A stretch of DNA of 64,000 bases, taken from the NCBI GenBank assembly GCA_017889705.1, contig JAGGAB010000012.1, forward strand, positions 97,678-161,677, written 5' to 3'. A program made the position numbers and the translations under genes. The notes below the pieces were generated by a model, which was not told where the DNA came from, made no database searches, and saw only the letters and a list, made by a program, of their open reading frames with translations. The DNA comes from Bacillota bacterium (GTDB lineage: Bacteria > Bacillota > Negativicutes > Sporomusales > Sporomusaceae). This document shows, in pieces, positions 28,739 through 39,438 of the stretch (the first letter of the stretch is position 1; each line of letters begins with the position of its first letter).

Positions 28739-28815
28739 TTGCGCTAAAATAATCACCATTGGCTAAAGTCAGCGTATACTATATAGCGTGAAGCCTGCCG
28801 GGGGGAGTGATGATA

Positions 28816-29406
28816 ATGACATGCCAATGGCCGGAAGACATTATTAGTGCTGTTGAAACCGGGCAAATATCTCCTCTTGAAGCCTTTAGAAAACTGCGGG
28901 AAATTGACAATGTTTATGGCAATGATATTCAGGGCAGTGTAGAACAGCGTATTGAAAATATTCTGCATGAGCTTGATAGTCTAATTGGTCTTACAGAAGT
29001 GAAAAAATTAGTGCGAGAGATATATGCGTTTATTGAAATTCAAAAACGTCGGGAAAAAGAACGGCTAAATACTGAGCCGCTGGTATTACATATGATTTTT
29101 AAAGGCAACCCCGGAACCGGCAAAACAACAGTAGCGAGAATTATGGGCAAGATATTCCGGGAGATGGGCGTGTTGTCACGGGGGCAGCTTATAGAAGTCG
29201 AGCGGGCAGATTTAGTAGGCGAGTATATAGGTCATACAGCCCAAAAGATGCGAGAGCAATTGAAAAAAGCCTATGGGGGAATCTTGTTTATTGATGAAGC
29301 CTATTCACTGGCGCGAGGCGGTGAGAAAGATTTTGGCAAAGAAGCAATTGATTGTATGGTGAAACCAAGGAAGCAAATCAGTATAAAACCGATAAAACGA
29401 TTTTAA
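28816..29406 (+). CDS. spoVK: SpoVK-like AAA+ ATPase, 5' part (interrupted gene)
   Basis: The true gene part runs to 29360; the rest is read-through into the inserted element up to a chance stop at 29404-29406. Residues 1-182 hold the N-terminal domain, Walker A GNPGTGKTT (about 97-105) and Walker B GGILFIDEAY (about 154-163). Sensor 1, arginine finger and lid are missing here and are found at 39027-39438. Joined at the shared GT, the protein has 318 residues, close to the about 320 of Bacillus SpoVK, a mother-cell protein needed for spore maturation. hfq upstream and hflX-ynbB downstream match the Bacillus order. ATG 28816 fits the GGGGGGAG ribosome site best; GTG 28807 and ATG 28810 are alternatives. 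Confidence 0.93.
   Translation: MTCQWPEDIISAVETGQISPLEAFRKLREIDNVYGNDIQGSVEQRIENILHELDSLIGLTEVKKLVREIYAFIEIQKRREKERLNTEPLVLHMIFKGNPGTGKTTVARIMGKIFREMGVLSRGQLIEVERADLVGEYIGHTAQKMREQLKKAYGGILFIDEAYSLARGGEKDFGKEAIDCMVKPRKQISIKPIKRF
29337..29388. other. attL of the spoVK intervening element
   Basis: This is the host left half joined to the element's left arm. The presumed crossover dinucleotide is GT at 29359-29360. The arm to its right (29361-29381, AAACCAAGGAAGCAAATCAG after the first G) is the inverted copy of the arm to the left of the GT at attR (39004-39024), 18 of 21 positions matching, with TTTTAT matching further out. Confidence 0.85.
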
Positions 29407-29569
29407 TAATATCCTGGTGTAACAGAAAAAAGCAGGAGTTTCCCTGGCTTTGCTATAAATTATGTTAGGAGTAAGGATATGTAGAGGTCAAGTATTAAAT
29501 TTGTTCGCTTTATTGCTAAATGAGGCCTTTGGTATTTCAAGAATTTGCATTAATGGAGTGAGTCTCGTT

Positions 29570-31000
29570 ATGGTTGTTGTATCTTCGCCGCATTCATCCA
29601 ATGTTAATCTTACTTTCGAAGAGATTTCTGCAGTTTTTGAGCAGTCTTATGATGGTATTCTGGTTATCGACAGTGATACCAATGTGGTGTTGGTCAATGA
29701 CTCTTATTTTCGGATAACCGGCCTTGATCGGAAAGACATTGAAGGTAAAAACTTACGGGAGTTTGTAAAGAATAGCCCCTATAAGAAAGCAGCCTGTATT
29801 GAAGCCTTAGTTAGCAAGAAATCGGTGACCAGGACATTTAATAACTTGGTTCCCGGTAAAATAGTTATGATTACTGCCAATCCCATTTTGGATGAAGACG
29901 GACGTGTACGTCTGGTAATCGGCAATTGCCGGGACATGTCCGAAATGGTACAGCTAAGAGAGCAACTTGAAAGAGCGCAGGAAATTGAAGAGCTATATTA
30001 TAAAAGCTTGCAAGATCCTAAAGCAACAGCGCCGATTACTGTTAGCAGTCGCATAAATGAAATCTATCACGCCGCCTTAAAAGTCAGTTCTGTCGATATT
30101 AATGTCTTGATAACAGGGGAATCCGGTGTAGGTAAGGAAGTGCTGGCAAGGTATATTCATGAAAACAGTTCCCGAAAGGAAGCTTCGTTTGTTGCCGTTA
30201 ACTGCGGAGCTATTCCCGATAATTTACTGGAATCAGAATTCTTTGGTTATGAGGGCGGTACTTTTACCGGGGCGTTGAAGCATGGCAAGAAAGGTCTATT
30301 TGAGACTGCTGACGGGGGAACCATCTTTTTAGACGAAATCGGTGATTTGCCGTTAAATTTGCAGGTGAAATTACTGCGGGCACTGGATGCCGGCGAAATT
30401 ACCAGGGTTGGCGCCAATTCGCCAACACCGGTCAATGTCCGAATTATAGCTGCAACCAACAAAGATTTAGGAAACATGGTACGGGAAAATAAATTTAGGG
30501 AAGATTTATATTATCGTTTAAATGTTATTCATTTTCATATCCCGCCACTACGGGAAAGACCGGAAGATATTCGGCCGCTGTGCATGTATTTCCTCAATGA
30601 AGGTAATCGGCGCTATGGACAAAACAAAAAGCTGAGTTTTGAAGTACAAAAAAAGTTGGAAAACTACAAGTGGCCGGGGAATATACGCCAGTTGAAGCAT
30701 GTGATTGAACGAATGGTTGTACTAAGCGATGGTGAAAACCTGGAGTTATCAGCATTTGCAGCAAATGATGAGCTGCGAAACGATAATATCATAGCGGCGG
30801 AAGCAACTGATCTGATTATGATTAATAAATACAGCCCGATTCCTCAGGTAGTAGCAGAGGTTGAAAAGCAGCTTTTAGCACATGCCATGAAACAGTATAC
30901 AAGCAGCCGCCAAATTGCTAAAGTTACTGGAATTGATCAAACAACCGTGTTGAGGAAAATCAAAAAATATGGTCTTGATCAATTGCAGACAGAAGAATAG
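29570..31000 (+). CDS. PAS-domain sigma-54-dependent transcriptional activator
   Basis: 476 residues from ATG 29570; an in-frame GTG at 29558 and ATG at 29462 also exist. Order: PAS domain (about 15-125, IDSDTNVVLVNDSYFRITG), AAA+ domain with Walker A GESGVGKE and Walker B GGTIFLDEIGDLP, and a C-terminal Fis-type helix-turn-helix (SSRQIAKVTGIDQTTVLRKIKKYG). The loop that contacts sigma-54 reads GTFTGA instead of the usual GAFTGA, a conservative change. No receiver domain, so the PAS domain probably senses a ligand or redox state. Its likely target is the adjacent nifJ operon, which has a -24/-12 promoter. Confidence 0.93.
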   Translation: MVVVSSPHSSNVNLTFEEISAVFEQSYDGILVIDSDTNVVLVNDSYFRITGLDRKDIEGKNLREFVKNSPYKKAACIEALVSKKSVTRTFNNLVPGKIVMITANPILDEDGRVRLVIGNCRDMSEMVQLREQLERAQEIEELYYKSLQDPKATAPITVSSRINEIYHAALKVSSVDINVLITGESGVGKEVLARYIHENSSRKEASFVAVNCGAIPDNLLESEFFGYEGGTFTGALKHGKKGLFETADGGTIFLDEIGDLPLNLQVKLLRALDAGEITRVGANSPTPVNVRIIAATNKDLGNMVRENKFREDLYYRLNVIHFHIPPLRERPEDIRPLCMYFLNEGNRRYGQNKKLSFEVQKKLENYKWPGNIRQLKHVIERMVVLSDGENLELSAFAANDELRNDNIIAAEATDLIMINKYSPIPQVVAEVEKQLLAHAMKQYTSSRQIAKVTGIDQTTVLRKIKKYGLDQLQTEE

Positions 31001-31028
31001 TTAATATATCAAACTGGTTTTGTCTGAC

Positions 31029-31063
31029 AAGAAGATTCTTGTAAAACAGGAGTCTTCTTTTGT
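31029..31063 (+). terminator. Terminator after sigma-54 activator gene
   Basis: Stem AAGAAGATTC pairs with GAGTCTTCTT (one G-T pair) and is followed by TTTTG. Confidence 0.65.
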
Positions 31064-31133
31064 ATTTAGGAGAATGATTATTCAGAAGAGAAAGAGGGAA
31101 ATGAAATATCCTGAGAAAAGAAAAACATGCTAA

Positions 31134-31150
31134 TGAGGCGAAATACCTCA
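31134..31150 (+). promoter_or_regulatory. Candidate upstream activator site
   Basis: A perfect dyad TGAGG-N7-CCTCA lies about 217 bp before the -24 element, the usual distance for enhancer sites of sigma-54 activators. A degenerate copy, TGAGGCGATATTTTGCA, lies at 31221-31237. Confidence 0.5.
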
Positions 31151-31366
31151 ACGAAAATTCAAGAAATCATTAAGAGCCAGGATAGTTAGTGTTTGATGCA
31201 CTGAGGTATCTTGCATCGAATGAGGCGATATTTTGCAGAACTTGAAGGGGATTTTATCGTCGCTAGGATGCTGGACAGTTCATTTACAAAGAAAAGAATT
31301 TTAAAACATCTGCAATTTCAAGGCTTTAATGGCCTATTTTTTTTTGCTGATGTTAAAAGTAGGTTA

Positions 31367-31384
31367 TTGGCATAAAATTTGCGA
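31367..31384 (+). promoter_or_regulatory. Sigma-54 (-24/-12) promoter of nifJ-ptb-buk
   Basis: TTGGCATAAAATTTGCGA: GG and GC are separated by exactly 10 bp, and the match to TGGCAC-N5-TTGC is close. With an RpoN activator encoded directly upstream, this is a strong promoter call. Confidence 0.85.
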
Positions 31385-31490
31385 TATAAATTATTTGGAT
31401 TGGAATTGCCTACTGCCCAGGCAGTAGGCTTGAATACAGATAGCAAGCTTTACATTGTACAGCGGCACAAGTGAAAGGAGTTTTAGCTAC

Positions 31491-34400
31491 ATGAATAAAG
31501 TAATGAAAACAATGGATGGCAATGAAGCTGCAGCTTATATATCATATGCTTTTACAGAAGTTGCGACAATTTATCCGATTACTCCATCTTCGCCAATGGC
31601 GGAACTTGTTGATGTCTGGTCAGCCCAAGGTAAGAAGAATTTATTCGGGCAAACAGTACGTCTGGTGGAAATGCAGTCAGAGGCAGGGGCGATTGGAGCC
31701 ATGCATGGTTCTTTGGAAGCGGGAACATTAACCACTTCTTATACTGCTTCTCAGGGGCTGCTGCTTATGATACCAACGATGTATCGTTTATCCGGACAAT
31801 TAAAACCAGGGGTTTTGCATGTTAGTGCACGGACTGTTGGTACACATGCATTTTCAATCTTTGGTGATCATTCTGATGTTATGGCTTGCAGGCAGACCGG
31901 TTTTGCGATGCTGTCAACTGGAAGCGTTCAGGAAGTCATGGATTTAACGGCAGTTGCTCATTTGGCTGCCATTAAGGGTAGAATTCCGTTTTTGCATTTC
32001 TTTGACGGATTTAGAACCTCTCATGAAATTCAAAAAGTGGAATGCCTGGATTATGATGAGGTTGGTCGCTTGTTAGATCAGCAAGCATTGGAGGAATTTC
32101 GCAAGAATTCTTTAAATCCAGAGCGTCCGGTAATGCGAAGTGCTGTAGAAAATCCGGATGTATTTTTTCAGGCAAGAGAAGCGGCAAATCCTTTTTACAA
32201 TAATTTGCCTTCTGTCATAGAAGAGTACATGAATGAAATTAACAAGCTAACCGGCAGGAATTATAAACTGTTTAATTATTATGGGGCGAAAGATGCGGAA
32301 TATGTGATTGTTGCCATGGGTTCTGTCAGCGGGGTTATTCAGGAAACGGTAGATGCCTTGAATAGACAGGGGAAAAAGACCGGATACCTTCAGGTACATT
32401 TATATCGACCATTTTCACTGGAACACTTCATTAAAGAAATGCCGGTAACAGTGAAAAAAGTTACTGTTTTGGATCGGACCAAGGAGCCGGGCGCAGCAGG
32501 TGAACCTTTATATCTTGATGTTTGTGCCGCGTTTTTTGACCAGGAAACAAGACCACAGATTTTTTCGGGACGCTATGGTTTGTCCTCAAAAGACGTTACG
32601 CCAGCGCAGATGATAGCTGTCTATAACAATATGATGAGCGATGCGCCGAAGAAATACTTTACTGTTGGTATTACTGACGATGTAACCCATTTATCGCTGC
32701 CGGTAGGAAAAGAAATTGACCTTGCCGATGAGGGAACAATCAGTTGCAAATTCTGGGGGCTTGGTTCTGATGGAACAGTGGGGGCTAACAAAAACTCCAT
32801 AAAAATTATCGGTGATCATACCGAGCAGTACGTGCAGGCATATTTTGAATACGATACAAAAAAATCCGGCGGGATTACCAAGTCGCATTTGCGGTTCGGG
32901 AGAAAGCCTATCCGCTCAAGTTATTATGTAAAAATGGCTGACTTTGTTGCGTGTCACAATCCTTCCTATATCAGTAAATATGATATTGTATCAGATATAA
33001 AAGATAATGGTATTTTTTTATTAAACTGCAGTTGGATCGGGAAAGAATTGGATGAAAATCTGCCGGAAAATATAAAAAGAGCGTTGGCAGAAAAAAAGGT
33101 TCAGTTTTATACCATTGATGCAACTAACATCGCAAAAGAAATTGGCTTAGGTAATCGCTTTAATAGTATTCTGCAGGCCGCTTTCTTTAAAGTGGCAAAT
33201 GTGATTCCGGTGGCGCAGGCTGTCGCCTATATGAAAGAAGCAATCTTAAAAACCTATGGCAAAAAAGGCGATAAAATTATCCAAATGAATTATGCGGCTG
33301 TAGACCAAGGTATAGCAAGTGTGCAGCAAGTGGAGATTCCGGCAGCATGGCTGAACGCAGTAGATAAAGAGATCGAAGAAAATAGCCTGTTGCCTGACTT
33401 TGTTAAGAATATGATGATACCGATGAATGACCAAAAGGGTGATGACATTCCGGTCAGTGCATTTGCTGGCAGGGAAGACGGCACTTTCCCGCTGGGAACA
33501 TCAGCGTTTGATAAGCGCAGTATTGCTGTTGATGTGCCGGAATGGTTAGCAGATAACTGTCTGCAGTGCAATCAGTGCGCTTATATCTGTCCGCATGCAG
33601 CTATAAGACCGTTTTTGCTTACCGAGGAAGAAACGGCAGCGACTCCTGAAGGATATAACACCAGCAAGGCTAAGGGGAGTGGCTTAGAAGGCTATGAATA
33701 CCGTATGCAGGTCGATGTAATGGATTGTTATGGTTGCGGCAGCTGTGCACAAGTTTGCCCGGCTAAAGAAAAAGCATTAATTATGAAGCCGCTTGAAACG
33801 CAAAAAGAGCAGGCGACAAACTGGGAATATTCCCTGAAGCTCTCACACAAGGATAATCCTTTAGATAAGTTTACTGTGAAGGGAAGTCAGTTTGAACAGC
33901 CGCTGCTTGAGTTTTCCGGTGCCTGCGCAGGCTGTGGTGAGACTCCTTACATGAAACTGATGACGCAGCTATTTGGCGATAGGATGTATGTAGCTAATGC
34001 AACCGGTTGCACCCAAGCTTGGGGTGCAGCGGCACCTTGCTTTCCGTATACGGTGAATAAGGATGGCTGTGGCCCAGCCTGGTCAAATTCCTTGTTCGAA
34101 AACAATGCAGAGTTCAGCCTTGGCATGTGTCTGGCTGTAAAACAACAACGTGAGCGGCTTGCCATGAAGCTGGAACAACTGCTGCAAATCACCCAGGACA
34201 GTGCCTTAAAAATGGCTATTTCATCATGGTTGGAACATATTGATGATGAAACAGCTACCAAAGTAGTAAGCGCCAAGCTACTTGCCGAACTTTATGCGGT
34301 GGAATGTACCGGCGAAGAAGCTGTGATAAAAGAATTTGTATTGAATAATAAAGAACATTTAGTCAAAAAATCTATGTGGATGTATGGTGGTGACGGCTGG

Positions 34401-35015
34401 GCCTACGATATTGGCTATGGTGGCCTGGATCATGTATTGGCCTCCGGTGAAGATGTAAACATTTTAGTGGTTGATACTGAAGTGTATTCTAATACTGGCG
34501 GGCAATCTTCAAAAGCCACACCGATCGGTGCGGTTGCGCAGTTTGCTGCTTCCGGCAAAAAGATCCAAAAGAAAGATCTGGGGATGCTTGCGATGACATA
34601 CGGTTATGTCTATGTAGCCCAAGTGGCTATGGGAGCAAATCCGGCCCAATTAATTAAAGCGTTAAAAGAAGCGGAAAGTTATAAAGGACCATCATTGGTT
34701 ATTGCTTATGCGCCTTGTATTAGCCATGGTTTGATAAAAGGTATGGGCTCGGCTCAGATGGAAGCCAAACGGGCGGTAGAGGCAGGCTATTGGCATCTTT
34801 ACCGATATAATCCTTTGCTCAAAGAGCTAGGCAAAAATCCATTTGTGCTCGATTCTAAAGAACCACAAGCCAATTTTAAAGATTTCTTGATGGGCGAAGT
34901 AAGATATTCTGCCTTGGTGAGAAGTTTCCCAGAGCAAGCACAAGAGTTATTTGACGTAGCAGAGAAAGCGGCAATTGAAAAATATCGGACATATAAAAAG
35001 CTGGCTGAAGATTGA
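31491..35015 (+). CDS. nifJ: Pyruvate:ferredoxin (flavodoxin) oxidoreductase
   Basis: 1174 residues, the single-chain homodimeric form. It converts pyruvate and CoA to acetyl-CoA and CO2 and reduces ferredoxin. Visible are the domain I start (IYPITPSSPMAELVD), two 4Fe-4S motifs (CLQCNQCAYICP, CYGCGSCAQVCP), the proximal cluster motif CAGCGETPY and the TPP site GDGWAYDIGYGG with SNTGGQSSKATP. ATG 31491 follows AAAGGAG; an in-frame start at 31455 lacks a ribosome site. It is the first gene of a sigma-54 operon inside the spoVK element. Being expendable in the mother cell, it is probably a second PFOR copy. Confidence 0.96.
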   Translation: MNKVMKTMDGNEAAAYISYAFTEVATIYPITPSSPMAELVDVWSAQGKKNLFGQTVRLVEMQSEAGAIGAMHGSLEAGTLTTSYTASQGLLLMIPTMYRLSGQLKPGVLHVSARTVGTHAFSIFGDHSDVMACRQTGFAMLSTGSVQEVMDLTAVAHLAAIKGRIPFLHFFDGFRTSHEIQKVECLDYDEVGRLLDQQALEEFRKNSLNPERPVMRSAVENPDVFFQAREAANPFYNNLPSVIEEYMNEINKLTGRNYKLFNYYGAKDAEYVIVAMGSVSGVIQETVDALNRQGKKTGYLQVHLYRPFSLEHFIKEMPVTVKKVTVLDRTKEPGAAGEPLYLDVCAAFFDQETRPQIFSGRYGLSSKDVTPAQMIAVYNNMMSDAPKKYFTVGITDDVTHLSLPVGKEIDLADEGTISCKFWGLGSDGTVGANKNSIKIIGDHTEQYVQAYFEYDTKKSGGITKSHLRFGRKPIRSSYYVKMADFVACHNPSYISKYDIVSDIKDNGIFLLNCSWIGKELDENLPENIKRALAEKKVQFYTIDATNIAKEIGLGNRFNSILQAAFFKVANVIPVAQAVAYMKEAILKTYGKKGDKIIQMNYAAVDQGIASVQQVEIPAAWLNAVDKEIEENSLLPDFVKNMMIPMNDQKGDDIPVSAFAGREDGTFPLGTSAFDKRSIAVDVPEWLADNCLQCNQCAYICPHAAIRPFLLTEEETAATPEGYNTSKAKGSGLEGYEYRMQVDVMDCYGCGSCAQVCPAKEKALIMKPLETQKEQATNWEYSLKLSHKDNPLDKFTVKGSQFEQPLLEFSGACAGCGETPYMKLMTQLFGDRMYVANATGCTQAWGAAAPCFPYTVNKDGCGPAWSNSLFENNAEFSLGMCLAVKQQRERLAMKLEQLLQITQDSALKMAISSWLEHIDDETATKVVSAKLLAELYAVECTGEEAVIKEFVLNNKEHLVKKSMWMYGGDGWAYDIGYGGLDHVLASGEDVNILVVDTEVYSNTGGQSSKATPIGAVAQFAASGKKIQKKDLGMLAMTYGYVYVAQVAMGANPAQLIKALKEAESYKGPSLVIAYAPCISHGLIKGMGSAQMEAKRAVEAGYWHLYRYNPLLKELGKNPFVLDSKEPQANFKDFLMGEVRYSALVRSFPEQAQELFDVAEKAAIEKYRTYKKLAED

Positions 35016-35056
35016 ACCCGATATTGGCTATTACAAAATTAAAGAGGTGTCAACAA

Positions 35057-35971
35057 ATGATTAAAAAATTTGAGGAAATTGTAAAGCATGCTCAGGCAAT
35101 AGGCCCGAAAACTATTGCTGTAGCAGCAGCTCAAGATATAGATGTATTGTTAGCGGTCAATAATGCCAAGAAATTAGGCATAGCTGATGCGATTTTAGTT
35201 GGTGCTGAGTCGGAAATCCGCCGGATTGCGCTGGAAAATCAGATTGATATTAATAAGTTTAAGATTATTGATCAACAAGATATTGTTGAAGCCTGTCGCA
35301 CCGCAGTTAAACTTGTTGCCACAGGTCAAGCGCACATTGTTATGAAAGGTCTGGTAGAAAGCGCGACAATCCTTAAAGCTGTGCTTGATAAAGAATTCGG
35401 ACTTAGAACCAATAGCGTATTATCCCATGTTGCCGTAGCGGATATTGCCGGCTATGATCGTTTGTTCTACCTGACAGATGCTGCTATGAATATCGAGCCG
35501 GACCTGCAGACTAAGAAACAGATTATTGAAAATGCGCTGCGAGTTGCGCGGGCTTTAGGCAACGAATGTCCCAAAGTGGCTTGTGTCTGTGCTGTAGAGA
35601 AAGTAAATCCCAAAATGAAAGCGACCTTAGATGCCGCAGAACTGGTAAAAATGAATAAAGACGGCGATTTAACAGGCTGTATGGTGGCCGGACCGCTTGC
35701 CCTTGATAACGCAGTATCACCGGAGGCGGCAAAACATAAAGGGATTACCGATCCAGTCGCCGGGAATGCTGATATATTGCTGGTGCCATATATTGAAGCA
35801 GGCAATATGGTATATAAATCTATTGTCTTTTTTGCCAGAGGGCAAATAGCCGGCATAATTGTTGGCGCAAAAGTACCGGTTATTGTGACATCCAGAGCAG
35901 ATTCTGATATAGCTAAGCTCAATTCAATTGCTATTGGGGTTTTAATGGCAAGTAAAAGTGAGGGAAACTAA
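35057..35971 (+). CDS. ptb: Phosphate butyryltransferase
   Basis: 304 residues of the phosphate acetyl/butyryltransferase family. It swaps CoA for phosphate on butyryl-CoA (or branched acyl-CoA). Typical segments are [18 protein letters not shown] and [22 protein letters not shown] 35057 follows AGAGGTG; a TTG at 35012 overlaps nifJ and lacks a site. With buk it forms the two-step path from acyl-CoA to acid with ATP gain. Confidence 0.93.
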
Positions 35972-35975
35972 TACT

Positions 35976-37058
35976 ATGAAAATCAATTTTCGAGTGCTGG
36001 CAATTAACCCGGGTTCAACATCTACCAAGATTGCTGTTTTTGATAATGAACAATTGCTTTTAGAGCAAGTCATAAGATATTCGAATGAAGAGCTTGCTCC
36101 TTTTAACACAGTTATAGAACAATATGAATTCAGGAAAAGCGGAATACTTACAACATTAGAGGAAAATAACATTGACATTGCCAGTTTAAATGCTGTAGTA
36201 GGCAGAGGCGGGTTGCTTAAGCCTATTGAAGGCGGCACTTATGAGGTTAATGAAGCAATGCTGGCCGATTTGCGGCAGGCAAAAAACGGCCAGGAGCATG
36301 CTTCGAATTTGGGCGGGGTACTAGCCAAAGAGATTGCGGATAATTTAAATATTCCTGCGTATATTGTTGATCCGGTTGTTGTTGATGAACTTGCTGACGT
36401 TGCCCGGGTATCTGGCTTGCCAGGCTGTGACAGAGTAAGTATTTTTCATGCCTTGAACCAAAAAGCCGTAGCTCGGAAAATTTCGCAAGAACTAGGCAAG
36501 TCTTATGAACAAGCCAATTTAATCATTGCCCATATGGGGGGCGGGATAACCGTTGGCGCACATCAAGGCGGCAAAGTAATTGATGTTAATGACGGCCTGT
36601 ATGGTGAAGGGCCTTTTTCCCCGGAACGGACTGGCGGGCTGCCTACAGGACGCTTAATTGACTTGTGCTTTTCCGGAAAATATACCAGCCCGGCAGAGGT
36701 CAGAAAGATAATTGCCGGCAAGGGTGGCCTGGTAGCTTATTTAAATACCAATGATGGCCGAGAAGTATGTAACCGAATTGAAAATGGCGACGAGAAGGCA
36801 AAATTAATCTATTCGGCGATGGCTTATCAGATAGCTAAAGAAATTGCTGCAAGCTCAGCTGTCCTCTTTGGTAAGGTAGACGCTATTGTATTAACTGGTG
36901 GACTGGCCTATGATAAGCTGCTAGTAAAAATGATTACTGAGCGGGTCACTTTCATTGCTGAAGTAAAAGTTTTTCCTGGTGAAAATGAAATGAGTGCCTT
37001 GGCAGAAGGGGCACTACGGGTATTGCGTGGACAGGAGCGGGCTAAAGAATATAAATAG
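35976..37058 (+). CDS. buk: Butyrate kinase
   Basis: 360 residues, ASKHA fold. Motifs [15 protein letters not shown] (phosphate 1), [20 protein letters not shown] and VLTGGLAYD (adenosine) are typical of butyrate/branched-chain acid kinases. ATG 35976 follows GAGGG and begins 4 bp after the ptb stop. It makes ATP from butyryl phosphate. Last gene before the convergent recombinase. Confidence 0.94.
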
Positions 37059-37117
37059 TGTAGCTGTATAGTAAAAGCGTTTGAATGTGCGATGAGACAT
37101 ATATGGTTGTTGAAAAA

Positions 37118-37160
37118 AATGAACCCTCTTCACTTTAATGCTGAAGTGAAAGGGTTCATT
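37118..37160. terminator. Bidirectional terminator between buk and recombinase
   Basis: The 18-nt arm AATGAACCCTCTTCACTT pairs with its near-complement at 37144-37160; A and T runs flank it on both sides. It overlaps the stop codon of the recombinase gene. Confidence 0.85.
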
Positions 37161-38682
37161 TCAATTTAAGCTGTACATTGATTTCGGGTCGGCTGCCACG
37201 ACCACGTGTATCATCAATTCGTTCAACGACAACTTGAGCTACCACTGCCCGCAAAGCATTTTTCTTGTCGTCTGTGGAAAAAGTCTCTTTATCAAAATTC
37301 TGTCTAATTATTGCGGTAATTTCAGAGATGGAAGGGGGCAATGTGGCAATAGTCAATTCGGCTGTATATGCTGTTCTTAGGTGAGCAATTTCAGCTAACT
37401 GAGTATGGATGGATTTTAACTCAATTTCTGTTTCGTCTTCAGTCAGTATTTGTTGTTGAAACCAGCGTAACAGGATTTGCTTTTGATGCAACAATTCTTT
37501 TTCTGTTCTTACCATCTGATCAAGCGCGATTTTTTGTTTCAACATATATTCCTTTGGGGGCGCAGTACGGAAGTAATCTTCGATTTGCACAGGGTTATAA
37601 CAAAGTTCAAAGAGGTAATTAAAAACATAATCGTCCAGTATTTTAGTGGGTATTTGTCTGGCATTACATGGTTTTTGTCCCGAATAAAGGTAAGCTGAAC
37701 TTTTGTGGCTTAGGCAGGTGTAATAGCTAATGAAATTTTTGCACCCCGAATGAGATATTATCATAGCTCTGCCGCATTTAGCGCAAATAACAATTCCATT
37801 CAAAAGATAATCATACTTTAAATTGCGTTTTGCAGAATTTTTGTTTGCCTGTAATTGTTTTTGGGCAGCCTGCCAGGTAGCTTCATCAATAATTGCGGGA
37901 ACAGAAATTGGAATCCATTCTGACTCAGGTCTCAGGCTGCGTTTTCTTTTGGTTAGGCCGACTTTTTCATAGCGATATTTCATTGAATAGATGACGCCTT
38001 TATAAAGGCTATTGGTTATTATTCGGTGTACACTTGAGATGATCCAGGCTTTTTTCGCTCGGGGAGAAGGGATGCCTCTGGCATTTAACTCTTTACAGAT
38101 TAGGGCAGTACCTATTTTTTCTTTCACAATAAAGTCAAAAATCATCTTTATAATTTTGGCGTCTGATTCATTTATTACATAAGTGCTTTTGGCTGAATCA
38201 AAGCTATAGCCGAAGGGTTTGGCATTGCTTATGACCAGACCTTTAGAAGCTTTGCCGCGTTTGCCGCGCATAGTGCGTTCCTTGATCTTTTCTTTTTCAT
38301 ACTCAGCCACTATGCCCTGAAATTTGTACATCAGTTCGCCTTCAGATGTTGATTCGAAGTTGACAGACGCAAATTTGCGCAGTGCTCCGGCTTTGCTTAT
38401 TTCTTCCGAAATAATGAGAAGATGAATTGTTTTGCGGGCTAGGCGATCAGGTGCATAAGCTATTACCACCTGGAAAAGTTTATTTTTAAGTTTTTCACGA
38501 AGACTGGTCAATGCCGGACGATCAATAAATTCTCCGGAATAACCATCGTCAACAAACTCTACAATGTCAGTTGCTCCTAATTCGAGGGCATATTTGCGAC
38601 AAGCGTCTAATTGAGTATCAAGCGAATAACCTTTTTCGGCCTGCTGCTCTGTAGATACTCGGACATAAATAGCAGCGTTCAT
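37156..38682 (-). CDS. Large serine recombinase, SpoIVCA-like
   Basis: 508 residues. The resolvase domain has the catalytic serine in YVRVSTEQQ (Ser10) and the arginine motif DRLARK; then the recombinase domain (PFGYSF, GIPSPRAKKAWIISSVHRII) and a zinc ribbon with CAKCGRAM and paired downstream cysteines, then a coiled-coil region (about 385-445). This is the layout of SpoIVCA, which excises skin from sigK, and of phage integrases such as the SP-beta enzyme. It is the only recombinase in the element and lies near the right end, reading inward. It follows a 50-residue ORF by 24 bp. Confidence 0.95.
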   Translation of the reverse strand: MNAAIYVRVSTEQQAEKGYSLDTQLDACRKYALELGATDIVEFVDDGYSGEFIDRPALTSLREKLKNKLFQVVIAYAPDRLARKTIHLLIISEEISKAGALRKFASVNFESTSEGELMYKFQGIVAEYEKEKIKERTMRGKRGKASKGLVISNAKPFGYSFDSAKSTYVINESDAKIIKMIFDFIVKEKIGTALICKELNARGIPSPRAKKAWIISSVHRIITNSLYKGVIYSMKYRYEKVGLTKRKRSLRPESEWIPISVPAIIDEATWQAAQKQLQANKNSAKRNLKYDYLLNGIVICAKCGRAMIISHSGCKNFISYYTCLSHKSSAYLYSGQKPCNARQIPTKILDDYVFNYLFELCYNPVQIEDYFRTAPPKEYMLKQKIALDQMVRTEKELLHQKQILLRWFQQQILTEDETEIELKSIHTQLAEIAHLRTAYTAELTIATLPPSISEITAIIRQNFDKETFSTDDKKNALRAVVAQVVVERIDDTRGRGSRPEINVQLKLK

Positions 38683-38706
38683 AGCGAATACATCCTAACC
38701 AATAAT

Positions 38707-38859
38707 TTACTCGCAGGGAGGCAATTGTAGTTTTTTTAGCAACCCTTTGATGAGCGGAAACATAAATTTTTTACAGTATGAATCATGCATACCGGGATTG
38801 TGGTTTATTAGGGAAATGTTAACGCTTGCCTTCACGTCTTTATTGCAGTTAGCTTTCAT
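38707..38859 (-). CDS. 50-residue ORF, candidate recombination directionality factor
   Basis: Starts at ATG 38859 behind GAGGTG and ends 24 bp before the recombinase start on the same strand, so the two genes look like an operon. The product is small and basic (many Lys; three Cys, one near the start and two further on), with a C-terminal run IKGLLKKLQLPP. The size and place fit the small proteins that switch serine integrases to excision (SP-beta SprB is of similar size), but there is no recognised homology. Too short for standard ORF calls. Confidence 0.5.
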   Translation of the reverse strand: MKANCNKDVKASVNISLINHNPGMHDSYCKKFMFPLIKGLLKKLQLPPCE

Positions 38860-38877
38860 AGTTTTTCACCTCGATTA

Positions 38878-38885
38878 ATCGTATG
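38878..38885 (-). promoter_or_regulatory. Candidate mother-cell sigma (sigma-E-type) -10 box
   Basis: On the minus strand the sequence CATACGAT lies 19 bp before the start codon of the 50-residue ORF. It differs by one base from the sigma-E -10 consensus CATACAnT. The -35 region is weak, and the start point would fall almost in the ribosome site, so this is only a suggestion. Confidence 0.35.
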
Positions 38886-38940
38886 CCGGTACAGGTTGTC
38901 TAATTGATAGTTTTTTTGAGGACGTAAAACCTTTATCCGA

Positions 38941-38998
38941 TAATAACCAACCCGTTCTAATACTCCCGACCTCATCTCATATGCCAGGAACTAATTTT
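38941..38998 (-). repeat. Dispersed palindromic repeat, copy C (3' fragment)
   Basis: On the minus strand it reads GTTCCTGGCAT-ATGAGATGAGG-TCGGGAGTATTAGAACGGG. It matches copy A's 3' end with an internal deletion and matches copy B over its last 22 bases. It ends directly at the right attP arm of the spoVK element. Confidence 0.6.
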
Positions 38999-39002
38999 TT
39001 AT

Positions 39003-39050
39003 GCTGATTTGCATCCTGGGTTTTGTCAAATCAATGGAAGATCATAAAGA
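39003..39050. other. attR of the spoVK intervening element
   Basis: Element right arm (39004-39024, CTGATTTGCATCCTGGGTTT plus one T), crossover GT at 39025-39026, then the host sequence that continues spoVK (CAAATCAATGGAAGATCA). The arm is the inverted partner of the one at attL. Confidence 0.85.
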
Positions 39051-39438
39051 TGAATTTATTTTAATCTTAGCGGGATATAAACGGGAAATGGATAATTTTT
39101 TACAGACAAATCCTGGGTTGCATTCACGATTTCCCATACATATTAATTTCCCTGATTATAGCAGGCAGGAATTATTGCAGATTGCTGATCAACTGTGTGT
39201 AAAGCGTCAATATCAACTTAATGCGCAAGCCCAAAACACACTATTACAACTACTAAATTTGCCTGAACATTGTAATGAGGACAATTTTGGCAATGCCCGT
39301 ACTGTGCGAAATATTATTGAAAAGGCTATCAGGAGGCAGGCTGTTCGATTAATAAACAAACATTTTACCACCCGGGAAGAATTAATGGTTATTGAACCGT
39401 GCGATTTAGAGGAGGTGGGAAAATGCGCGAGTGTATGA
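39027..39438 (+). CDS. spoVK: SpoVK-like AAA+ ATPase, 3' part (interrupted gene)
   Basis: The frame from the GT junction codes for the missing half of the ATPase: sensor 1 ILILAGYKREMDNFL, arginine finger LHSRFP, and the lid with sensor 2 (NARTVRNIIEKAIRRQAV). An open frame with ATG exists from 39001 but its first nine codons are element sequence. Without excision no ribosome would make an active ATPase from either half. The stop lies 16 bp inside the next gene, so the joined transcript would continue into the GTPase and UbiA-like genes. Confidence 0.93.

What the first reader, a model, noticed from the sequence alone, without database searches (positions are those of the whole stretch)
28816..39438. 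spoVK-like sporulation gene interrupted by a precise, skin-like 9.67-kb element
The AAA+ ATPase gene breaks off right after Walker B and resumes 9.67 kb later at sensor 1. Joining at a common GT gives ...EAIDCMVKSMEDHKDEF..., continuous with the SpoVK family, 318 residues. Flanks (miaA-hfq upstream, hflX-ynbB downstream) match Bacillus spoVK synteny. The element encodes a SpoIVCA-like recombinase and lacks phage genes. Known sporulation intervening elements sit in sigK, spsM and spoVFB; I do not recall one in spoVK. Developmental excision is inference; the split, junction and recombinase are seen.
Basis: partly seen in the sequence, partly recalled or inferred. Interest (0 to 1): 0.94.

Follow-up and report, generated by a model that had tools for sequence, protein, structure and literature searches.

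The report
Self-excising metabolic island splits spoVK
In a spore-forming bacterium that is likely a Sporomusa, the sporulation gene spoVK is split by a 9.7-kb island of metabolic genes that carries its own recombinase and is predicted to cut itself out cleanly when a spore forms; the same gene is split at the same codon in 25 of the 48 genomes with spoVK found in a 150-genome sample of its class.

Summary
spoVK is cut after Walker B into 28807-29360 and 39025-39438 by a 9,666-bp element with a shared GT core. The host is not Bacillus but probably Sporomusa (Negativicutes). Of 150 genomes of the class, 48 carry spoVK: 25 split at this codon, 22 intact, 1 unsplit but out of frame. All 25 split genomes, and none of the 22 intact ones, have the orthologous large serine recombinase. 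The core is GT in 24 of 24 left and 24 of 24 right ends; the window's element arms form a 24/28 palindrome, as expected of attP. Both gene halves are under purifying selection. A small ORF beside the recombinase is kept in 10 of 10 elements of this type: the candidate directionality factor. Cargo differs between elements: keto-acid and butyrate enzymes here; thiamine, chemotaxis, galactose, formate or defence genes elsewhere; no phage structural gene was seen. Excision itself is not shown. Six literature searches gave no spoVK element; known ones sit in sigK, spsM, spoVFB, spoVR, gerE and yabG. So: the kind of skin and gin, with a new target gene, class-wide spread and metabolic cargo. The same genome's sigK is also split, by about 42.5 kb.

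The parts
28754..28783 (+). sigma-K-like promoter site before spoVK, CACC-N17-TATACTATA
   Evidence: A like site in 10 of 24 split and 9 of 21 intact copies, shuffled mean 0.01; pattern written after seeing some of the sequences; consensus recalled
28807..29360 (+). 5' part of spoVK (AAA+ ATPase up to just past Walker B); the ORF runs on into the element to 29406
   Evidence: TIGR02881 positions 2-136; CbbX 3zuh residues 16-154
29359..29388 (+). attL: GT core and left element arm
   Evidence: GT in 24 of 24 left ends; arm is inverted copy of the right arm over 24 of 28 bases
29462..31000 (+). cargo: PAS domain sigma-54-dependent activator, nearest to PrdR
   Evidence: NF041552 416 bits, below its cut-off; Pfam Sigma54_activat
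31455..35015 (+). cargo: pyruvate:ferredoxin oxidoreductase (PFOR), full length
   Evidence: TIGR02176 1876 bits, positions 1-1167 of 1167
35012..35971 (+). cargo: phosphate butyryltransferase (Ptb)
   Evidence: NF004472 434.7 bits, above cut-off; TIGR02706 just below its cut-off
35958..37058 (+). cargo: butyrate kinase (Buk), full length
   Evidence: TIGR02707 549.6 bits, positions 1-351 of 351
37156..38682 (-). large serine recombinase, 508 aa
   Evidence: Resolvase, Recombinase and zinc-ribbon domains; orthologues in 24 of 24 other split genomes
38707..38859 (-). 50-aa ORF, candidate recombination directionality factor
   Evidence: Kept directly upstream of the recombinase in 10 of 10 type I elements; 42 profile hits; no Pfam match; function untested
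38872..38899 (-). conserved box before the small ORF, ACAACC-N7-GCATACGATTAATCG; possible mother-cell promoter -10
   Evidence: Pattern in 9 of 10 type I elements, CATA in 10 of 10; no clear -35
38997..39026 (+). attR: right element arm and GT core
   Evidence: GT in 24 of 24 right ends
39025..39438 (+). 3' part of spoVK (sensor 1 to the lid domain)
   Evidence: TIGR02881 positions 133-261; CbbX 3zuh residues 156-261

Best explanation
The sporulation gene spoVK is split at one codon by a 9,666-bp site-specific island that is predicted to be cut out in the mother cell by its own large serine recombinase, likely switched to excision by the 50-residue protein encoded beside it, which would rejoin spoVK in frame. 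Shown: the split, the shared GT core, the palindromic element arms, the conserved recombinase and small ORF, purifying selection on both gene halves, and the same arrangement in 24 relatives. Inferred: that exchange at GT gives one intact spoVK and a circle; that the small ORF is the directionality factor and is made late, in the mother cell; that losing the island there costs nothing because the mother cell dies while the forespore keeps it. spoVK would thus be a harbour in which a recombinase-plus-directionality-factor module carries exchangeable metabolic or defence genes.
For: Split at the same codon with the orthologous recombinase in 25 of 48 spoVK-bearing genomes, and that recombinase in 0 of 22 intact ones. 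GT core in 24 of 24 left and 24 of 24 right ends; window arms inverted over 24 of 28 bases, 0 of 2000 shuffles as good. dN/dS of split halves 0.06 and 0.083. In 5 of 24 right halves there is no ATG, GTG or TTG between the preceding stop and the junction. Small ORF in 10 of 10 type I elements. The arrangement matches SPbeta, where SprA and the 58-aa SprB suffice for excision during sporulation (passages), and C. difficile skin with CD1234 (passages). B. subtilis spoVK is made in the mother cell from sigma-E and sigma-K promoters (passages).
Against: No excision product was seen: the predicted circle junction is absent from the assembly, 0 hits with up to 2 mismatches. No sporulation data exist for this organism. 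The palindrome is not above chance in 7 of 13 type II elements. The window's right half has an in-frame ATG nine codons before the junction. The conserved box has no clear -35. The role of the small ORF rests on position, size and conservation.
Confidence: 0.87

Rival explanations
1. A recently inserted integrative element has simply inactivated spoVK; the host no longer makes SpoVK and the gene is decaying.
For: The assembled form of the gene is interrupted and no second copy was found.
Against: Split copies have no premature stops and dN/dS of 0.06 and 0.083, no higher than in intact copies (0.102 and 0.12); all 6 f3 and both f6 genomes with spoVK are split, so the state has lasted.
Confidence: 0.03
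2. The two halves are made as separate polypeptides that assemble into a working ATPase; no excision is needed.
For: The window's right half has an ATG nine codons before the junction with AGGA-like bases in front, and several type I relatives keep that ATG.
Against: 5 of 24 right halves have no usual start codon; the break falls inside the ATPase domain, between Walker B and sensor 1; the ATG lies within the conserved right element arm, which explains its recurrence.
Confidence: 0.03
3. Excision is real but not developmental: the element leaves and re-enters at low rate at any time, and spores form from the cells that happen to have an intact gene.
For: No timing data exist here; the yin element was found excised at all time points of culture (passages); the box before the small ORF lacks a clear -35.
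Against: A CATA box resembling mother-cell -10 sites precedes the small ORF in 10 of 10 type I elements, and sprB of SPbeta, which is mother-cell specific, likewise has a good -10 and an imperfect -35; the presence of type II throughout f3 and f6 argues against frequent loss.
Confidence: 0.07

Closest known systems
gin element in gerE of Bacillus cereus ATCC10987 (PMC5595907, abstract and passages)
   Same: Splits a mother-cell sporulation gene; no phage genes; serine recombinase plus a small factor (GirC, GirX) rejoin the gene in sporulation
   Different: 28.6 kb, three recombinases, one strain, mostly uncharacterised genes; here one recombinase, another gene, many genera, recognisable metabolic operons
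skin elements in sigK (C. difficile: PMC5025042, abstract and passages)
   Same: Large serine recombinase, directionality factor, mother-cell excision rejoining a split gene
   Different: Prophage-like, target is sigK; a separate such interruption lies in the sigK of the window's own genome
SPbeta in spsM of B. subtilis (PMC4191935, abstract and passages)
   Same: Recombinase SprA is the best full-length relative of solved structure (YokA); a 58-aa partner SprB sets the timing
   Different: A complete prophage in a polysaccharide gene; no sequence likeness of SprB to the small ORF was tested
vfbin (spoVFB), vrin (spoVR) and yin (yabG) (PMC4191935, PMC10747680, passages)
   Same: Other sporulation genes split by recombinase-bearing elements
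   Different: Described as phage-like; none is in spoVK

Membership tests
Sporulation gene-intervening element (skin type) | Lies inside the coding sequence of a sporulation gene that is made in the mother cell | tested here: met
   Both halves match SpoVK; mother-cell expression is known for B. subtilis spoVK, not measured here
Sporulation gene-intervening element (skin type) | Encodes a site-specific recombinase | tested here: met
   508-aa large serine recombinase, in 25 of 25 split genomes
Sporulation gene-intervening element (skin type) | Short shared core at both ends that rejoins the gene in frame | tested here: met
   GT in 24 of 24 and 24 of 24 ends; intact relatives continuous at that codon, 22 of 22
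Sporulation gene-intervening element (skin type) | Encodes a recombination directionality factor | tested here: inconclusive
   Conserved 50-aa ORF beside the recombinase; activity unknown
Sporulation gene-intervening element (skin type) | Excised during sporulation | not testable with these tools
   No reads or cultures; no circle junction in the assembly
Prophage | Structural phage genes | tested here: not met
   None among the window's ORFs; none among the 25 of 51 PHROG families shown for 72 ORFs of 13 elements, most of them unnamed
SpoVK (TIGR02881) | Curated cut-off 422.95 bits | tested here: inconclusive
   The halves apart score 245.2 and 161.9 bits; three intact relatives score 422.1, 422.3 and 429.5, so two lie just under the cut-off, with CbbX far lower

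The most novel reading that the evidence does not exclude
spoVK is a class-wide developmental harbour: small non-phage islands of one recombinase plus one directionality factor sit in it, swap whole metabolic or defence operons between genera, and are deleted from the mother-cell genome at every sporulation; in a Sporomusa ovata-like genome, where the two halves lie 292 kb apart in opposite orientation, the same reaction would be a programmed 292-kb chromosome inversion.
Probability: 0.4. Interest if true: 0.87.

Novelty: new variant of a known kind. Interest (0 to 1): 0.76.

Why it matters
It adds a gene to the six sporulation genes I found reported as split, in a class of spore-formers for which two searches found no such report, and in about half of the sampled genomes that have the gene, not in single strains. 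The islands carry ordinary operons, not phage structural genes, which suggests that developmental excision is a general way for mobile DNA to live harmlessly inside a needed gene. sigK and spoVK are both interrupted in one genome, so two DNA rearrangements in one developmental pathway become testable. The recombinase, its small partner and the conserved sites are also a compact excision module.

Tried and rejected
Decay of spoVK: rejected by dN/dS and absence of early stops. A second spoVK: none found. A free circle in the assembly: none. The window's cargo in the other elements: PFOR, Ptb and Buk in none of the fetched stretches, only sigma-54 activators (44% and 39%) in two. Repeats around attL: none. 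sigma-54 sites in the window: 5 found, 3.9 expected, so the one before PFOR is only suggestive. Literature: searches gave no spoVK element; subscription papers are not held. One search listed two papers with both words; of one I read the spoVK passages, of the other only the listing.

Limits: both trees are quick ones with many unresolved forks. The promoter patterns were written after seeing some of the sequences. Shuffles keep base counts only. Left out of the split/intact counts: G012 (L061), unsplit but out of frame, and G136 and G094, taken as other AAA proteins from their low scores and long frames. Stretches with under 100 bases upstream were left out of the promoter count. flags a TAA in four left halves (G049, G060, G077, G089); from the tblastn start none has a stop, and in G049 the TAA stands directly before the ATG. 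Only few pairs had a usable dS: 31 and 34 of 276 among split copies, 9 and 12 of 231 among intact ones. 72 chosen ORFs of 13 elements were scanned.
Full report
WHAT IS THERE. The left ORF (28807-29406) covers SpoVK profile TIGR02881 positions 2-136 and the right ORF (39001-39438) positions 133-261. On the CbbX structure 3zuh they align to residues 16-154 and 156-261; by motif (recalled) the cut lies between Walker B and sensor 1. GT at 29359-29360 recurs at 39025-39026; exchange there would remove 9,666 bp. The left half occurs once in the genome.

WHOSE GENOME. It is a 5.0-Mb draft. In its genus group G006 has the contig length of Sporomusa termitida, and G007 is probably S. ovata DSM 2662, from the place of another recombinase; G011, of the same family, has the contig length of S. 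carbonis. I infer Sporomusa, class Negativicutes.

HOW COMMON. In 150 genomes drawn from the class, 48 hold spoVK: 47 by the left half (48 hits less G136) and G085 by its right half. 25 are split at this codon, 22 are continuous, and one (G012) is unsplit but out of frame. A recombinase of one clade (E <= 1e-159, 49-73% identical to the window's) lies between the halves, or on the contig of one half where contigs end inside the element or in the inverted case G007, in 25 of 25 split genomes; no intact genome has one. G064, intact, has a more distant one (46%) on another contig. The 20 elements with both ends in one stretch measure 2,972 to 23,106 bases between the halves; in G008, G038, G085 and G089 contigs end inside the element. 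In the protein collection, of the 120 best relatives of the left half listed (of 5,241), 84 are 260 aa or shorter and 36 are 300 or longer; some short ones may be cut by contig ends.

ATTACHMENT SITES. The core is GT in 24 of 24 left and 24 of 24 right ends (G085 lacks the left, G089 the right). In the window the two element arms are inverted copies over 24 of 28 bases. At most 9 of 2000 shuffles do as well in 10 of 10 type I elements; of 13 type II elements 6 reach 45 of 2000 or fewer and 7 do not stand out.

THE HALVES ARE KEPT. No half has an early stop; the stops seen in three split and three intact right parts lie at residue 130-131 of 135-136. Median dN/dS among split copies is 0.06 (left, 31 of 276 pairs usable) and 0.083 (right, 34 of 276); among intact copies 0.102 (9 of 231) and 0.12 (12 of 231). 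In 5 of 24 right halves (G031, G057, G060, G067, G077) no ATG, GTG or TTG lies between the preceding stop and the junction; the window's right half does have an ATG nine codons before it.

THE MACHINERY. The recombinase has resolvase, recombinase and zinc-ribbon domains; among solved structures its best full-length relative is YokA, the SPbeta integrase, which PMC4191935 calls SprA (equation of the two names recalled). Directly upstream, on the same strand, lies a 50-aa ORF (38707-38859), present at that place in 10 of 10 type I elements, in two of them as the end of a longer frame, with 42 profile hits in the protein collection, those with an organism named being from Sporomusa, Pelosinus, Anaerospora and a Veillonellales bacterium. 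Seven of seven type II elements of the Pelosinus family (f12) carry a different conserved ORF of about 57 aa. By place, size and company the first is the candidate directionality factor; the second is a weaker candidate. Before the window's ORF lies a box, ACAACC-N7-GCATACGATTAAT, whose pattern is found in 9 of 10 type I elements, the tenth keeping GCATACGA. The CATA part resembles -10 sites of sigma-E and sigma-K (recalled). sprB of SPbeta also has a matching -10, an imperfect -35 and a start 20 nt before its gene. spoVK itself has a CACC-N17-TATACTATA site in the window, and a like site in 10 of 24 split and 9 of 21 intact copies; in B. subtilis spoVK has a sigma-E and a sigma-K promoter.

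THE CARGO. Window: PAS/sigma-54 activator, PFOR, Ptb, Buk. The genome has three further PFOR and two further Buk genes over the cut-off, so loss of these copies need not harm. G004: 2-hydroxyacid racemase and an MFS transporter; G057: enolase, a glyoxylate-reductase-like enzyme, tartronate-semialdehyde reductase; G068: ThiH and a ThiE/TenI-like protein; G016: formate dehydrogenase, with ThiG seen once by Pfam among the 72 ORFs. G038: sugar ABC ATPase, GalK, GalT; G008: QueC, a QueE-like protein, PyrF, PyrC; G061: a CheA-like protein; G011: RadC. BrxL and PglZ models match once each among the 72 ORFs, which I assign to G011 from its gene order. Several of these score below their family's curated cut-off (racemase, enolase, reductase, ThiH, formate dehydrogenase, GalK, GalT, QueC, PyrF, PyrC and RadC score above one). 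The 25 of 51 PHROG families shown include integrases, transposases and nucleases but no structural phage gene; most have no name.

HISTORY. On quick trees type II follows its host families (all 6 of f3, both of f6 and 7 of 10 of f12 that have spoVK), while type I is scattered over f1, f16, f19 and f25, and the f19 element groups with Sporomusa ones. The split/intact label needs 12 changes on the SpoVK tree. One type looks like a settled resident, the other as if it still moves.

AN INVERTED CASE. In G007 the left half lies at C4:734648-735208 (minus) and the right half at C4:442898-443305 (plus), with the recombinase beside it. The right arm matches that of G008 at 90-97% in pieces, while the left arms share nothing beyond the attachment site. 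Exchange between these sites would invert 292 kb and rejoin spoVK. A misassembly is not excluded.

A SECOND INTERRUPTED GENE. In the window's genome sigK is also split: N part C36:65503-65928, C part C36:108433-108657, a 521-aa ORF at the place of the recombinase between them, about 42.5 kb in all, and AATGAG at both ends. No match reaches the TIGR02846 cut-off, as expected of a split gene. This is the classic skin arrangement.

COMPARISON AND VERDICT. Known intervening elements sit in sigK, spsM, spoVFB, spoVR, gerE and yabG (abstracts and passages); six searches gave no spoVK case. By anatomy this is the same kind, nearest to gin in lacking phage genes; the defining act, excision in the mother cell, is predicted and untested.

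Noticed in passing
G000:C36:65503-108657 (L119, L120), outside the window: sigK of the same genome is split by about 42.5 kb with a 521-aa recombinase-like ORF just inside: a skin-type interruption, so two sporulation genes are interrupted in one genome.
   Followed up: partly
L032 and L033 (G007:C4), probably Sporomusa ovata DSM 2662: spoVK halves 292 kb apart in opposite orientation: recombination of the two sites would invert the stretch instead of excising it.
   Followed up: partly
L046, L049, L064, L066, L068, L069, L070: Seven of seven type II elements of the Pelosinus family share a different small ORF of about 57 aa, perhaps their own directionality factor.
   Followed up: partly
window 31368-31383: TGGCATAAAATTTGCG, one mismatch from a sigma-54 site, about 70 bases before the PFOR ORF and downstream of the sigma-54 activator gene; 5 such sites in the window where 3.9 are expected.
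   Followed up: no
L036 (G011, Sporomusa carbonis): The 20-kb element there seems to carry a BREX-type defence system (BrxL and PglZ models; assignment to this element by gene order).
   Followed up: partly
L103 (IMGVR_UViG_3300021518_000003): A contig of the viral collection with a 45% identical recombinase, a possible lead to a phage or other ancestor.
   Followed up: no
G064:C92:870-2387: A 46% identical recombinase in a genome whose spoVK is intact; its insertion site was not looked up.
   Followed up: no
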